48,516 nt of DNA, from NCBI GenBank assembly GCA_031269735.1, contig JAISYS010000026.1, forward strand, positions 1 through 48,516, read 5' to 3'. A program made the translations under genes and the position numbers. The stretch is from Candidatus Endomicrobiellum cubanum (lineage in GTDB: Bacteria > Elusimicrobiota > Endomicrobiia > Endomicrobiales > Endomicrobiaceae). Within the stretch, counting starts at the first letter, position 1, and each line of letters starts with the position of its first letter. This document shows positions 43,343-48,516 of the stretch, one piece after another. A model generated the notes under the pieces. The model was not told the DNA's origin. It saw only the letters and a program-made list of their open reading frames with translations, and did no database searches.

Positions 43343-43400
43343 AAATCACTTCATTCCAGTTTGACAAAAACTTTATATTTGTAACTTTTACTGATATGTG

Positions 43401-43727
43401 TCAGCTTTTTTTCTTTTTTGGTTTTGGGAATGCTGTTACAGCCAAAAGTTCCGTGACTACTATTTTGACAAACTCTTTGTCCTCAATGTCTAAAATATAA
43501 TGTTCTTTTGCCCCGTCATACGGATAGCCTTTTTGAGCCTCTCCCATATATAGTATCTAAACATGGCAAAATTTTTACGAAGACAGTGTTGTCACAAACC
43601 AGCAATATAGGCTTATCGTTAATATATATTAAAAATTCGCCAAACATTTTTTTATAACGTACTGAACCTGTATCTCTTCTTACTTGTTCTGCAACAAACT
43701 CTACGAACTCAATGGGGTTGTTGACAT
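43401..43727 (-). pseudogene. tfoX: Decayed TfoX N-terminal-domain protein
   Basis: The minus strand encodes IEFVEFVAEQVRRDTGSVRY then KKMFGEFLIYINDKPILLVC, and in another frame EAQKGYPYDGAKEHYILDI. These match the TfoX/Sxy N-terminal domain in order. The parts are separated by a frameshift in a TATATAT tract near 43550 and another near the start, at the CCCC after ATGTCAACAA. The last frame ends at 43401 after a lysine-rich tail. Two indels in about 110 codons make a pseudogene much the likeliest reading. Confidence 0.72.
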
Positions 43728-43750
43728 TAATTTAATTTCTTTTAATTTAG

Positions 43751-43927
43751 TCTCTGTTATTTAAATCCTGGCTTGATCTATCTGTAATACCTTACTTGAC
43801 CGGCAAAAGTAAAAAAGAAAGGTTTGGGGGGAACACTAATGCTCAAACAGATTTTAACTTCACAGCTGCATACCATGACTTGAGCGCTAGAGATAGACTC
43901 ACCTCAAACTTTCTTTTTAGTAAATAA
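43751..43927 (+). pseudogene. Fragment of an outer-membrane protein (DUF481/YdiY-like)
   Basis: A 58-codon open stretch with no start codon in context reads SWLDLSVIPYLTG, then GGNTNAQTDFNFTAAYHDL and RDRLTSNFLFSK. The GNTN, TxFNFTAAY, RDRLT order resembles strands of DUF481-type salt-induced outer-membrane proteins. It is preceded by a stop and followed by TAA, with nothing of the family on either side. It is probably a relic of a deleted gene. The family assignment is by eye and weak. Confidence 0.45.
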
Positions 43928-43932
43928 ACAAA

Positions 43933-44880: not shown

Positions 44881-44886
44881 GCGTGT

Positions 44887-44938
44887 ATTATAATAAATTT
44901 AAAATTTACTTGTAAAATTATAATAATATTAATATTAT
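44887..44938. promoter_or_regulatory. Overlapping divergent promoters sharing one -35 box
   Basis: TTGTAA (44910-44915) can serve as a -35 for both strands, since its complement is TTACAA. To the right, after 17 bases, is TATTAT (44933-44938), six bases before the histidine kinase ATG. To the left, after 17 bases, is a perfect TATAAT (minus strand 44892-44887), six bases before the M23 peptidase ATG. Both predicted start sites fall on the ATG itself. The region is very AT-rich, so chance matches are possible. Confidence 0.45.
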
Positions 44939-44944
44939 ATTCTC

Positions 44945-46957
44945 ATGAACTTTTTTAATCTGTTTTCAAGTTTATATTGGAAGCTTCGCGATAAAAAGTT
45001 TTTGTTTCTTGTAGCCGTATTTTCTATTCTTTTAAACTGGGCCGGATACTTTTTTGTTTACGAAAACAGTTACAATTTTTTATACTTCGATATGGTTGGA
45101 ACATTTGTAGCAGCAATAGTGTTAGGAAGCTTATGGGGCATAATAGTAGCTTTTGCTTCTACAATTTTACTTGCAGTGTCAACATCTCCACATTTTATTT
45201 ATCTTGCAGTCGTAAACATCGTGGGGGCATTATATTGGGGCATTCTAAGCGAGTGTGGGATTTTTACAATATTTAAAACCTTAGAACAAAAATCTTCTCT
45301 AAAGTCTAATTTCAGTAAAGCTATATATTTCTTATTATTTTATGGTGTTGGTGCTGGACTTTTGACAGCATTTTTTTCTTCTATTATAAGAAATATCATC
45401 TTCCAAAATATACTAGTAGATAAACCTTACTCTTTGTTTTTTGCTCATTTATTTAAAAATCTTTTTAATTTTTCAAATTCTGACATTACTACAATATTTA
45501 TAAACTATATAGCAGACACTTTTATAGAAATTCCTGACAAAATTATTGACGTCTTTTTCGGACTTACAATATGTTTAACAATATTCAAATTTAATATTTA
45601 TACATTAACAAACACTTATCAAAAACAAATATATAAAATTGATATACCTTGGCATAAAATAACACTAACTCGATTTTCCTCACCAGAAATCTGCTTATTT
45701 TTCATACTGATTATTATATACATTTTAAAGATAAAAACAACTTCTCTTAACTTGCTTGTAGGTTTTATGAATAACTTATCATTGTATTCTCTCCAAGATT
45801 ATATATTTTTAGAAATTCTTAGTTTTCCTATTTTTATATTTGTTATTTTTCTAATGTTAAATCTTTTTTCAGCAAGGTCATATAAATATTTACAAATTAC
45901 ACCAAAATATAATCTTGACATTAAAAGTATAGATAAAGACAGTAAATATTTTCTTATTGACATTTTTTTTGTATCAAGTATTTTAATAATCACATATTTA
46001 TTCATACTTATTGTCATAACAGGTATAACACCTATAGAATATTACAATACAATTAGCATTGTAAAAGCTAATCCAGAACTACTATTATGGTTATTAGTAA
46101 CTGTGTGCACTTTTATATTAATTGACCAAAGAAATAACAAAGTTACAGAATCTGTTACATTAAATAATGAACTTATAAAAAAACAAACTTCAGAACAAAT
46201 ATCTGGAGCTTTTGATGAACAAAAACAAAAACTACAAGTTTTAGAATTAAATTGGTCTGATAATACCTTAGAATTTTTAAAAAGCGCAAAGCACGATTTG
46301 ATAAATGATTTAGAAAAATCAAAAACAGGTCTAAACGAACTATTGACTGAAGTTTATGATAATGTTGTAAAACCATATACTAATCTTATTTTAAAAAACC
46401 AAAAAGAAATACGCGAATATATTGAAGAACTAACTAACAGAGATTTAAAAATTTATTACTTACAAGATATAATAAAAGAACTAGGAAATACTGTATCCAT
46501 GTTACAGTTAAAAGCTCCCTATATCAAAATTAGAATTATTAGAACTAAAAGAATTGACATTTATTGCAAAATAAATAAATTATTTTTTATAGCTTTTGAT
46601 AATATTTTAGACAATTCAGTATACGCTTTACAAAAACACGTGCTTAATAACAATTTTACTGCAACTATAAACATAGTATTAAAAATTAAAGATGATAAAT
46701 TCATATCTTTGTCAATTTTAGATAATGCAGGAGGGCTCTCAAAAGATAAAATTTCAAAAATATACAAATCTTCTATAGAAAGCTCTAAAGGCAATAGACT
46801 TGGAGAAGGCACTATAATAGCAAGCAATTTTATAAAAATACTAGGTGGTTTTATTTATGCAAAAAATATTCGATTTAGAAAAATGAATGGTTTAGAGACT
46901 GTAATTAATATTCCCTACTTTATAAAAGATTTCTCAACTGGAGAAAAAGATGAATGA
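44945..46957 (+). CDS. Multi-TM sensor histidine kinase
   Basis: The 670-residue protein has about eight hydrophobic segments within residues 18-395. The first block (FDMVGTFVAAIVLGSLWGII, then YLAVVNIVGALYWGI) resembles ECF-transporter S-component-like membrane modules. A linker follows (400-520) with a candidate H-box SAKHDLINDLEKSK, His450. The ATPase domain has an N-box FDNILDNSVYAL near 551, G1 box LDNAGGL near 592 and G2 box GEGT near 620. Its stop overlaps the response-regulator start by eight bases. The sensed signal is unknown; the small-molecule idea rests only on the resemblance of the membrane part. Confidence 0.85.
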   Translation: MNFFNLFSSLYWKLRDKKFLFLVAVFSILLNWAGYFFVYENSYNFLYFDMVGTFVAAIVLGSLWGIIVAFASTILLAVSTSPHFIYLAVVNIVGALYWGILSECGIFTIFKTLEQKSSLKSNFSKAIYFLLFYGVGAGLLTAFFSSIIRNIIFQNILVDKPYSLFFAHLFKNLFNFSNSDITTIFINYIADTFIEIPDKIIDVFFGLTICLTIFKFNIYTLTNTYQKQIYKIDIPWHKITLTRFSSPEICLFFILIIIYILKIKTTSLNLLVGFMNNLSLYSLQDYIFLEILSFPIFIFVIFLMLNLFSARSYKYLQITPKYNLDIKSIDKDSKYFLIDIFFVSSILIITYLFILIVITGITPIEYYNTISIVKANPELLLWLLVTVCTFILIDQRNNKVTESVTLNNELIKKQTSEQISGAFDEQKQKLQVLELNWSDNTLEFLKSAKHDLINDLEKSKTGLNELLTEVYDNVVKPYTNLILKNQKEIREYIEELTNRDLKIYYLQDIIKELGNTVSMLQLKAPYIKIRIIRTKRIDIYCKINKLFFIAFDNILDNSVYALQKHVLNNNFTATINIVLKIKDDKFISLSILDNAGGLSKDKISKIYKSSIESSKGNRLGEGTIIASNFIKILGGFIYAKNIRFRKMNGLETVINIPYFIKDFSTGEKDE

Positions 46958-47990
46958 AAAAAATAAAAAAATAATTGCTATAACAGACGATGACTCTAGT
47001 ATACGCATGTCTATAGAAAGGACAATAAAAAAATATTTTCAAGATATAGAAATATTACAATTTACTAATACAATAGAAATAAAAAAATTTCTTTTAAACA
47101 ATCCTGACAAAATAGATCTTTTGATTTTAGATATTTATTTTGGTTTTGGAGAAACAGGTCTTGATATTTTACCAAACATAAAAGAATTTTCACCAAATTT
47201 ACCAATAATATTGCTCTCTGCTATGGAAAAAAATTATGGACAAAAAATAACAGATATAGCAGGTGACTACATAATAGATTTCGTGGCAAAACCAGCAACA
47301 GAAACAGAACTTATTATAAAAATTAAAAAAGCGCTTACTACTAAAGAAGATAAAACAAAAACTATCGAGGATTTACAAAAAGAAAACTATTTACTTACAG
47401 AAATGTTAGATATTAAAGGCAAGGGCGCTGGACAACTTTTTGAAGACGAAGTAAACAATAAATTAAAAAACATGACAAAAGTATTTATGCAGTCACCATA
47501 CGAGCCAAAAGAAAACATTATAATTAACGGTCAAGAAATAGACGTTATAGCTTTTACAGCACCCCCTCTTCCATTTGCAATAATGTTATTTGAAGCAAAG
47601 TATTTCCCTAATGCAAAAATTATAGGAAATATCAACGATCCTACAAAAATTATTATAAATAATATAGAAAAAATTTCTACTAAAAGGAGAAACTTGTTTG
47701 AGCAATCTGAAAATCAGTTTAAACAGGTAAGTAAACGTATAGAAAAAGTTTTATATGATTTTAAATATACTAAAAAAGAAGAAAAGCTTAGACCTTTTAT
47801 ACAAAGTTTTATAGTTTTTACAGATACTACAGATATATCTCAAATAAAAACTATAAATGCAAATAAGTACACAAAAATATGCAAACTTAAAGACTTAACT
47901 CAAGATTTTTTAATAAAAACTGCTTTTGCTATGCCTAGAAGAACTGTAGAAGAAAATGTTAAAACAATAATATTACAAAACTTATTTTAG
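46950..47990 (+). CDS. Response regulator fused to a NERD (nuclease-related) domain
   Basis: The 346-residue protein has an N-terminal receiver domain (1-128) with acidic residues in TDDDS (13-15), phospho-acceptor Asp61 in LILDIYF, Ser90 and Lys114. After a helical linker (135-158) comes a NERD-like domain with GQLFEDEVNNKL (161-172), GQEIDVIAF (194-202), FEAKYF (214-219) and a later NQFKQV. Glu, Asp198 and Glu215-x-Lys217 form a PD-(D/E)XK-type set, so nuclease chemistry is plausible. A hydrophobic VFTDTT strand follows near 289. No DNA-binding output domain is present. The partner kinase gene is immediately upstream. Confidence 0.85.
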   Translation: MNEKNKKIIAITDDDSSIRMSIERTIKKYFQDIEILQFTNTIEIKKFLLNNPDKIDLLILDIYFGFGETGLDILPNIKEFSPNLPIILLSAMEKNYGQKITDIAGDYIIDFVAKPATETELIIKIKKALTTKEDKTKTIEDLQKENYLLTEMLDIKGKGAGQLFEDEVNNKLKNMTKVFMQSPYEPKENIIINGQEIDVIAFTAPPLPFAIMLFEAKYFPNAKIIGNINDPTKIIINNIEKISTKRRNLFEQSENQFKQVSKRIEKVLYDFKYTKKEEKLRPFIQSFIVFTDTTDISQIKTINANKYTKICKLKDLTQDFLIKTAFAMPRRTVEENVKTIILQNLF

Positions 47991-48153
47991 CTATTTTGAT
48001 TTCCACTTGAGAACACATTAAAAAATTCTTACCAATGCCTTATTAATTAGTTTAAATTTAGAGCTAGGATAAGCTGTTAAAAAGTTTTTTATGTCTAATT
48101 TTTGTAGAAGATATTTAAATCTATGTTAAATTCTTATAAAATTACCTACTTTT

Positions 48154-48450
48154 TCAATGCCAGTCCCAACTTAATCTTCTTATTTTATAAAAAACATCTA
48201 TAGGAACGTATTCAACATTATTTATTCCACTTTATGTTCTCCACGATAAATCACAGTTCTTTAATATTTAAAATATCTGAAACTTTATTAAGAACAATAG
48301 AATGCTCTCTTTTAGCTGTTCTTCCTGATTTTATCTCATATGCTTTCTGGCTATCAGTATCTGTCATATCTAGCAAGCCAACTTCATTATTGTTATTATC
48401 AGGATAATAATAAAGCTCTGATAGAATGCGTTTTATCTTGCCATGTATTT
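48154..48450 (-). pseudogene. C-terminal remnant of a DUF4143-type AAA+ ATPase
   Basis: The minus strand shows RILSELYYYPDNNNNEVGLL and then AYEIKSGRTAKREHSIVLNK. After a frameshift comes IYRGEHKVE, and after another NNVEYVPIDVFYKI. The order matches the PD-(D/E)XK-like DUF4143 C-terminus of ATPases in the AAA_14 group (NEVD, EIK, IYRGE, VP). At least two frameshifts and a missing N-terminus make it non-functional. The true extent may reach the window edge. The stretch 48001-48153 between it and the NERD gene holds nothing I can support. Confidence 0.6.
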
Positions 48451-48516
48451 AGAGTATTAATTTACATAAGTTAGAGTATATTATGTAAATAATATATACA
48501 AGTAAAGAGGGCAAGT

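What the first reader, a model, noticed from the sequence alone, without database searches (positions are those of the whole stretch)
44945..47990. Two-component system whose response regulator ends in a NERD nuclease-like domain
A membrane histidine kinase overlaps a response regulator lacking any DNA-binding output domain. Instead it carries a NERD-type fold with an apparently intact E, D, ExK set. That suggests phosphorylation-gated nucleic-acid cleavage or binding, possibly a stress or defence switch. I know of no characterised system of this exact design. It sits in an accessory stretch flanked by decayed genes, consistent with mobility.
Basis: partly seen in the sequence, partly recalled or inferred. 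Interest (0 to 1): 0.85.

Follow-up and report, generated by a model that had tools for sequence, protein, structure and literature searches.

The report
Sensor kinase controlling a nuclease-like regulator
Termite-gut and rumen bacteria of one family (Endomicrobiaceae) carry an inherited sensor kinase whose partner regulator ends, instead of in a gene switch, in an intact-looking nuclease-like NERD domain, suggesting that an outside signal may control a nucleic-acid enzyme directly.

Summary
Window 44945-46957 encodes a multi-TM histidine kinase with all catalytic motifs; it overlaps by 8 bases a response regulator (46950-47990) built as receiver, long helix (probable coiled coil), NERD-like domain. 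AlphaFold2 gives the C-terminal domain an alpha-beta3-alpha-beta (PD-(D/E)XK) core. E165, D198, E215-x-K217 and Q252 lie on the expected elements and are invariant in 27 relatives. A viral 'nuclease-related domain protein' matches the model (E 8e-4).

The pair occurs in 9 of 14 sampled genera of one family; kinase and regulator are present in the same 32 of 77 genomes. Gene trees agree, dN/dS is about 0.12-0.17 between the more distant species, and an M23/LysM peptidase gene stays next door. Endosymbionts without the pair are losing two-component signalling: two checked genomes have no receiver domain at all. No copy was found outside the family, within limits. PADLOC gave no hit, and none of the flanking genes examined looked like a defence gene.

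Best reading: a phosphorylation-controlled NERD enzyme acting on nucleic acid, conserved as ordinary signalling rather than as defence. Cleavage, substrate and signal are inferred. New variant of a known kind.

The parts
44945..46957 (+). Membrane sensor histidine kinase, 670 aa. Multi-helix membrane region (about residues 1-400; residues 26-110 weakly resemble an ECF-transporter S component), SpoOB/DcuS-like helical phosphoacceptor region with H450, HATPase about 507-660.
46950..47990 (+). Response regulator with receiver, helical linker and NERD-like domain, 346 aa; overlaps the kinase gene by 8 bases
46974..47324 (+). Receiver domain (residues 9-125): acid pair D13/D14, phosphoacceptor D61, S90 (S or T), F111, K114
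47301..47408 (+). Long helix 118-153, probable coiled coil: invariant L142, N146, L149, L153 at 4-3-4 spacing
   Evidence: coiled-coil reading is inference (part of the helix has pLDDT below 50)
47427..47987 (+). NERD-like PD-(D/E)XK domain (residues 160-346): E165 on helix A, D198 on strand 2, E215-x-K217 on strand 3, N248/Q252 and N255/Q256 on or beside the next helix
43933..44880 (-). M23/LysM peptidase with N-terminal membrane segment (by sequence), divergent from the kinase; next to the pair in the 16 loci compared, in three arrangements
44881..44944 (.). 64-base AT-rich divergent intergenic stretch, likely holding the promoters (inference)

Best explanation
A complete, chromosomal, family-specific two-component system with an enzymatic output. 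The membrane kinase senses an unidentified envelope or extracellular condition and passes a phosphate from H450 to D61 of the regulator. Phosphorylation is proposed to promote receiver dimerisation through the long helix, bringing two NERD domains together and switching on metal-dependent phosphodiester cleavage of a nucleic acid. Shown by sequence or model: intact kinase and receiver motifs, overlapping genes, strict co-occurrence, PD-(D/E)XK fold with motif residues on the expected elements, purifying selection, vertical inheritance. Inferred: that this kinase phosphorylates this regulator, coiled-coil dimerisation, catalysis, substrate (RNA or DNA) and signal. The distribution suggests a signalling or stress role rather than anti-phage defence.
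For: Receiver residues D13, D14, D61, F111, K114 invariant, S90 always S or T, in 27 sequences. Kinase H, N, G1 and G2 boxes invariant in 23. Predicted topology of the output domain H160-173, E187-192, E195-203, E210-217, then H251-270, E283-290, mostly at high block pLDDT, the PD-(D/E)XK order. E165, D198, E215, K217, N248, Q252 invariant; in 14 classical NERD proteins the D, E and K are invariant, with Q in 12 of 14. Foldseek places a viral 'Nuclease-related domain protein' at E 8e-4. Linker L142-N146-L149-L153 invariant. The receiver-linker-GGDEF protein DgcR is among the top PDB fold matches. Kinase and regulator found in the same 32 of 77 family genomes. dN/dS 0.12-0.17 for the window copy against four species. 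RR-HK distance correlation 0.93, HK-M23 0.96.
Against: No NERD activity is known to me; a 2022 paper states the function of NERD had not been studied experimentally (PMC9040797). The NERD Pfam score is marginal (22.9 against 22.1) and only 11 of 27 sequences match at E 0.1 or better. That model also matches about 120-aa proteins that look like the YraN/UPF0102 family, so the family name is less secure than the fold. Profile comparison with classical NERD is weak (E 0.0025, probability 12%). Placement of the two domains relative to each other is uncertain (pTM 0.54). High overall conservation means motif invariance is only moderately informative (60 of 188 C-terminal positions are invariant). 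The RR-M23 and HK-M23 correlations are as high as RR-HK, so they show vertical inheritance, not specific co-evolution.
Confidence: 0.5

Rival explanations
1. The NERD domain is a phosphorylation-controlled nucleic-acid binder without cleavage, acting as an unusual transcriptional or post-transcriptional regulator.
For: Most response regulators act by binding (established knowledge); no NERD nuclease activity is known to me; the domain is conserved as housekeeping signalling, where an unspecific nuclease would be dangerous.
Against: The whole set of catalytic-type residues, including the K of ExK, is invariant across a family with orthologues down to about 58% identity; a pure binder would be expected to lose some.
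Confidence: 0.2
2. The NERD domain acts at the envelope or division site through proteins rather than nucleic acid, comparable to the NERD-containing SmdA of Staphylococcus aureus, and the system controls cell-wall remodelling.
For: An M23/LysM peptidase gene lies within 400 bases in 16 loci, in three arrangements. SmdA needs its NERD residues for its effect on cell morphology (PMC9040797).
Against: SmdA is reported to lack several of the most conserved NERD residues whereas this domain keeps the motif set; no membrane segment was seen in the regulator; the M23 gene also occurs without the pair.
Confidence: 0.15
3. An anti-phage system in which infection triggers the kinase and the regulator kills or stalls the cell, as recalled for Detocs.
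For: Same logic as Detocs (histidine kinase, receiver-coupled toxic effector; from memory). PD-(D/E)XK domains are frequent defence effectors (established knowledge).
Against: No PADLOC hit. Family-wide vertical inheritance with a stable neighbour and no defence genes noticed nearby. Not seen in plasmid or phage collections. Two genes, with a membrane kinase.
Confidence: 0.08
4. The output domain is degenerate, and the regulator acts only through its receiver and helix, with the NERD fold as a structural remnant.
For: Weak Pfam score; the proline of the classical N-P-x-x-Q motif is missing.
Against: dN/dS of the NERD part is about as low as that of the receiver part; motif residues invariant.
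Confidence: 0.07

Closest known systems
PorY/PorX (Bacteroidota; response regulator with alkaline-phosphatase-superfamily phosphodiesterase domain)
   Same: Receiver plus a phosphodiesterase output; phosphorylation-driven dimerisation (PMC11320123); PorX is among the best whole-model PDB matches, largely through the receiver.
   Different: PorX output is a zinc-dependent alkaline-phosphatase fold, here PD-(D/E)XK/NERD; different lineage.
Classical NERD proteins (PF08378), alone or with membrane segments, kinases or helicases
   Same: PD-(D/E)XK-type motif D, E-x-K, Q; NERD proteins and NERD-helicase fusions occur in the same phylum.
   Different: None of the loci read outside Endomicrobiaceae showed a receiver on inspection (best 30 loci only); sequence similarity weak.
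DgcR-type regulators (receiver, coiled coil, GGDEF)
   Same: Receiver, helical linker and enzyme domain; among the top PDB fold matches.
   Different: Output is a diguanylate cyclase.
SmdA (S. aureus)
   Same: NERD-like domain with functional importance shown by mutation (PMC9040797).
   Different: Membrane-anchored, no receiver, lacks several of the most conserved NERD residues.
Detocs anti-phage systems (recalled from memory; paper not held)
   Same: Histidine kinase plus receiver-linked effector.
   Different: As recalled, three genes with a buffering protein; here two genes, a membrane kinase, no defence context.

Membership tests
Two-component histidine kinase | Phosphoacceptor His plus N, G1 and G2 ATP-binding boxes | tested here: met
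   H450, N553/D556/N557, D593-G596-G597, G620-E621-G622 invariant in 23 sequences; HATPase_c over cut-off in several orthologues, below it in the window copy.
Two-component response regulator | Receiver domain with acid pair, phosphoacceptor Asp, Ser/Thr and Lys | tested here: met
   PF00072 8.9e-11; D13, D14, D61, S90, K114.
Two-component system (cognate pair) | Phosphotransfer from this kinase to this regulator | not testable with these tools
   Only indirect: overlapping genes, same 32 of 77 genomes.
NERD (PF08378) | Score above Pfam's curated cut-off | tested here: inconclusive
   22.9 against 22.1 for the window protein; 11 of 27 sequences at E 0.1 or better; the model also matches YraN-like proteins.
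NERD (PF08378) | Conserved residues: helix-A E, D, E-x-K, N-P-x-x-Q | tested here: met
   E165, D198, E215/K217, N248, Q252 invariant; the proline is replaced. Register of the helix-A E against classical NERD is not secure.
NERD (PF08378) | PD-(D/E)XK core fold | tested here: met
   AlphaFold2 element order; BFVD match to a nuclease-related domain protein E 8e-4. No PDB match specific to this domain could be seen because receiver matches filled the list.
Active nuclease | Metal-dependent cleavage of DNA or RNA | not testable with these tools
   Needs biochemistry.
YraN/UPF0102 | Sequence-profile similarity | tested here: not met
   hhalign E 0.08, non-corresponding regions aligned.
Anti-phage defence system | Known defence family or defence-island context, patchy mobile distribution | tested here: not met
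   PADLOC none; vertical and with a stable neighbour.
Detocs | Kinase, separate buffering protein and effector regulator in one operon (from memory) | tested here: not met
   Only two signalling genes in the cluster; no third one seen beside the loci listed.
PorX | Alkaline-phosphatase-superfamily output domain | tested here: not met
   Output is NERD/PD-(D/E)XK.

The most novel reading that the evidence does not exclude
A housekeeping, non-defence two-component system whose phosphorylated regulator is itself a nuclease: an extracellular signal controls cleavage of cellular RNA or DNA directly, without a transcription step, as a lineage-specific invention of Endomicrobiaceae.
Probability: 0.3. 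Interest if true: 0.82.

Novelty: new variant of a known kind. Interest (0 to 1): 0.6.

Why it matters
NERD domains are widespread but their biochemical activity was described as unstudied in 2022 (PMC9040797). Here the domain sits under a switch that can be turned on in vitro with acetyl phosphate or beryllofluoride, which makes both questions testable: what NERD does, and whether a two-component system can act directly on nucleic acid. It also shows a signalling system being lost as free-living gut bacteria became endosymbionts of termite flagellates.

Tried and rejected
Mobility/accessory element: rejected on congruent trees, stable neighbour and purifying selection. Defence system: no PADLOC hit, no defence context. 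Membership in YraN/UPF0102, suggested by NERD-model cross-hits: rejected. Solved-structure sequence search with the NERD profile: only chance-level matches (best E 0.03). Kinase model too poor in the membrane part (mean pLDDT 60) to identify the sensor. Homologues of the NERD part in plasmids (none), of the whole regulator in phages (receiver only), of the NERD part in viral contigs (none). Remnants of the pair beside the M23 gene in 12 genomes without it: none found. Rfam: nothing. Literature: no paper in the held library joins NERD, response regulator and output domain; Galperin's 2006 and 2010 censuses are not held.

Full report
WHAT IS THERE. The window holds a kinase gene (44945-46957) and a regulator gene (46950-47990) on the same strand, overlapping by 8 bases; GGAG precedes the regulator's ATG. 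The regulator matches Response_reg (8.9e-11) and NERD (22.9 bits, cut-off 22.1) and no DNA-binding family. The kinase matches HATPase_c below the cut-off in the window copy but above it in orthologues; its helical region resembles the SpoOB type (12 of 23 sequences match weakly) and its membrane region weakly resembles ECF-transporter S components (12 of 23 sequences).

WHERE IT OCCURS. The window's genome (1.33 Mb, 60 contigs) belongs to the genus of Candidatus Endomicrobiellum: four orthologous loci are named records of that genus (contig lengths tie three of them to G017, G030 and G004, and the fourth is very likely G114). PMC11257099 describes that genus as endosymbionts of termite gut flagellates within the otherwise mostly free-living Endomicrobiaceae. 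A profile of the NERD part, searched in 295 genomes of the phylum, found it in 32 genomes of this one family; one further weak match (E 0.001) covered 32 positions only. The kinase profile, searched in 77 family genomes, found the same 32 genomes, in 9 of 14 genera. A scan of 84,980 species genomes returned 28 loci, all from records named Endomicrobia, Endomicrobiaceae or Elusimicrobia, from termite guts, ruminants and other sources. That scan used two short peptide patterns taken from this family, so it would miss diverged fusions elsewhere. Plasmid and phage collections and viral contigs gave no NERD-part homologue.

HOW IT IS INHERITED. dN/dS between the window copy and four other species is 0.12-0.16 for the regulator and 0.13-0.17 for the kinase; pairs among the three closest species give 0.25-0.43, where few differences make the ratio noisy. 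Trees of kinase, regulator and the neighbouring M23/LysM peptidase agree in their main groups, and distances correlate at 0.90-0.96. The M23 gene lies within 400 bases of the pair in the 16 loci used for that comparison: upstream and divergent, upstream and co-directional, or downstream and convergent. These 16 were chosen because they contain all three genes, and in some other genomes the M23 gene lies on another contig. Twelve genomes that have the M23 gene but not the pair show no remnant beside it. In Ca. Endomicrobiellum cryptotermitis (L098) the kinase is broken by stop codons, and its ATPase part is fused in frame to the regulator with most of the receiver missing. Among eleven genomes checked, two without the pair (G024, G069) have no receiver domain at all, G075 (no pair) has two, and the Endomicrobiellum genomes with the pair have four to six matches including this one. 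So the pair is an old family trait that is disappearing with two-component signalling in general, not an acquired island.

HOW IT IS BUILT. AlphaFold2 (27 sequences, mean pLDDT 79.8, pTM 0.54) gives a receiver, a helix 118-153, and a domain whose order H160-173, E187-192, E195-203, E210-217, extra strands, H251-270, E283-290 is the PD-(D/E)XK core. E165 is on the first helix, D198 on the second strand, E215 and K217 at the end of the third, Q252 and Q256 at the start of the next helix; all are invariant in 27 sequences. Because 60 of 188 C-terminal positions are invariant, this supports but does not prove activity. In a viral structure library, one match named for this domain was a 'Nuclease-related domain protein' (E 8e-4, probability 1.00). 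Sequence-profile comparison with classical NERD proteins of the phylum was weak (E 0.0025, probability 12%), but aligned the I-D, E-x-K and Q elements in order. The NERD model also hits YraN-like proteins, to which this domain is not similar. I therefore call it NERD-like, PD-(D/E)XK. The invariant L142-N146-L149-L153 spacing suggests a coiled coil; this is inference.

HOW IT PROBABLY WORKS. The kinase senses an unknown signal at the membrane, phosphorylates D61, the receiver and helix dimerise, and the paired NERD domains act on nucleic acid. The first step rests on intact motifs and gene pairing; the rest is inferred. Precedents: PorX, a receiver joined to a phosphodiesterase, dimerises on phosphorylation (PMC11320123), and DgcR, a receiver-linker-cyclase protein, is a top fold match. 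Rivals are non-cleaving binding, an envelope or division role as for SmdA, defence, and a degenerate output; I rank them in that order.

NOVELTY. Receivers fused to enzymes are a known kind (PMC5847659, citing earlier censuses that I could not read). I found no description of a NERD output (library limited), and the 2022 SmdA paper says NERD is occasionally found with kinase, pseudokinase or helicase domains and does not mention receivers in the passages read. Hence a new variant of a known kind.

Noticed in passing
L098 2995-5070: Decaying copy in Ca. Endomicrobiellum cryptotermitis: kinase split by stop codons and its ATPase part fused in frame to the regulator with most of the receiver deleted.
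   Followed up: partly
L167 504-1163 (-), same genome, contig C51: A separate stand-alone protein of about 220 aa with a much stronger NERD score (46.5 bits, E 4.9e-12) in the window's own genome, beside an exonuclease-like gene.
   Followed up: no
genomes G024 and G069: Two Endomicrobiellum genomes at 99% completeness have no receiver domain at all, suggesting complete loss of two-component signalling.
   Followed up: partly
Pfam PF08378 against about 120-aa proteins in the phylum (e.g. L156 196-558 +): The NERD model scores up to about 38 bits on proteins that look like YraN/UPF0102, so marginal NERD hits need structural support.
   Followed up: yes
window 43343-43932 and 47991-48516: Stretches with only short reading fragments, apparently gene remnants; by eye the first recalls a TfoX-N-type protein and the second the end of a DUF4143-type ATPase (not tested).
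   Followed up: no
window 45020-45274 (kinase residues 26-110): Membrane part of the kinase resembles an ECF-transporter S component (3.3e-7 for the window, 12 of 23 sequences), hinting at a small-molecule-binding sensor.
   Followed up: partly
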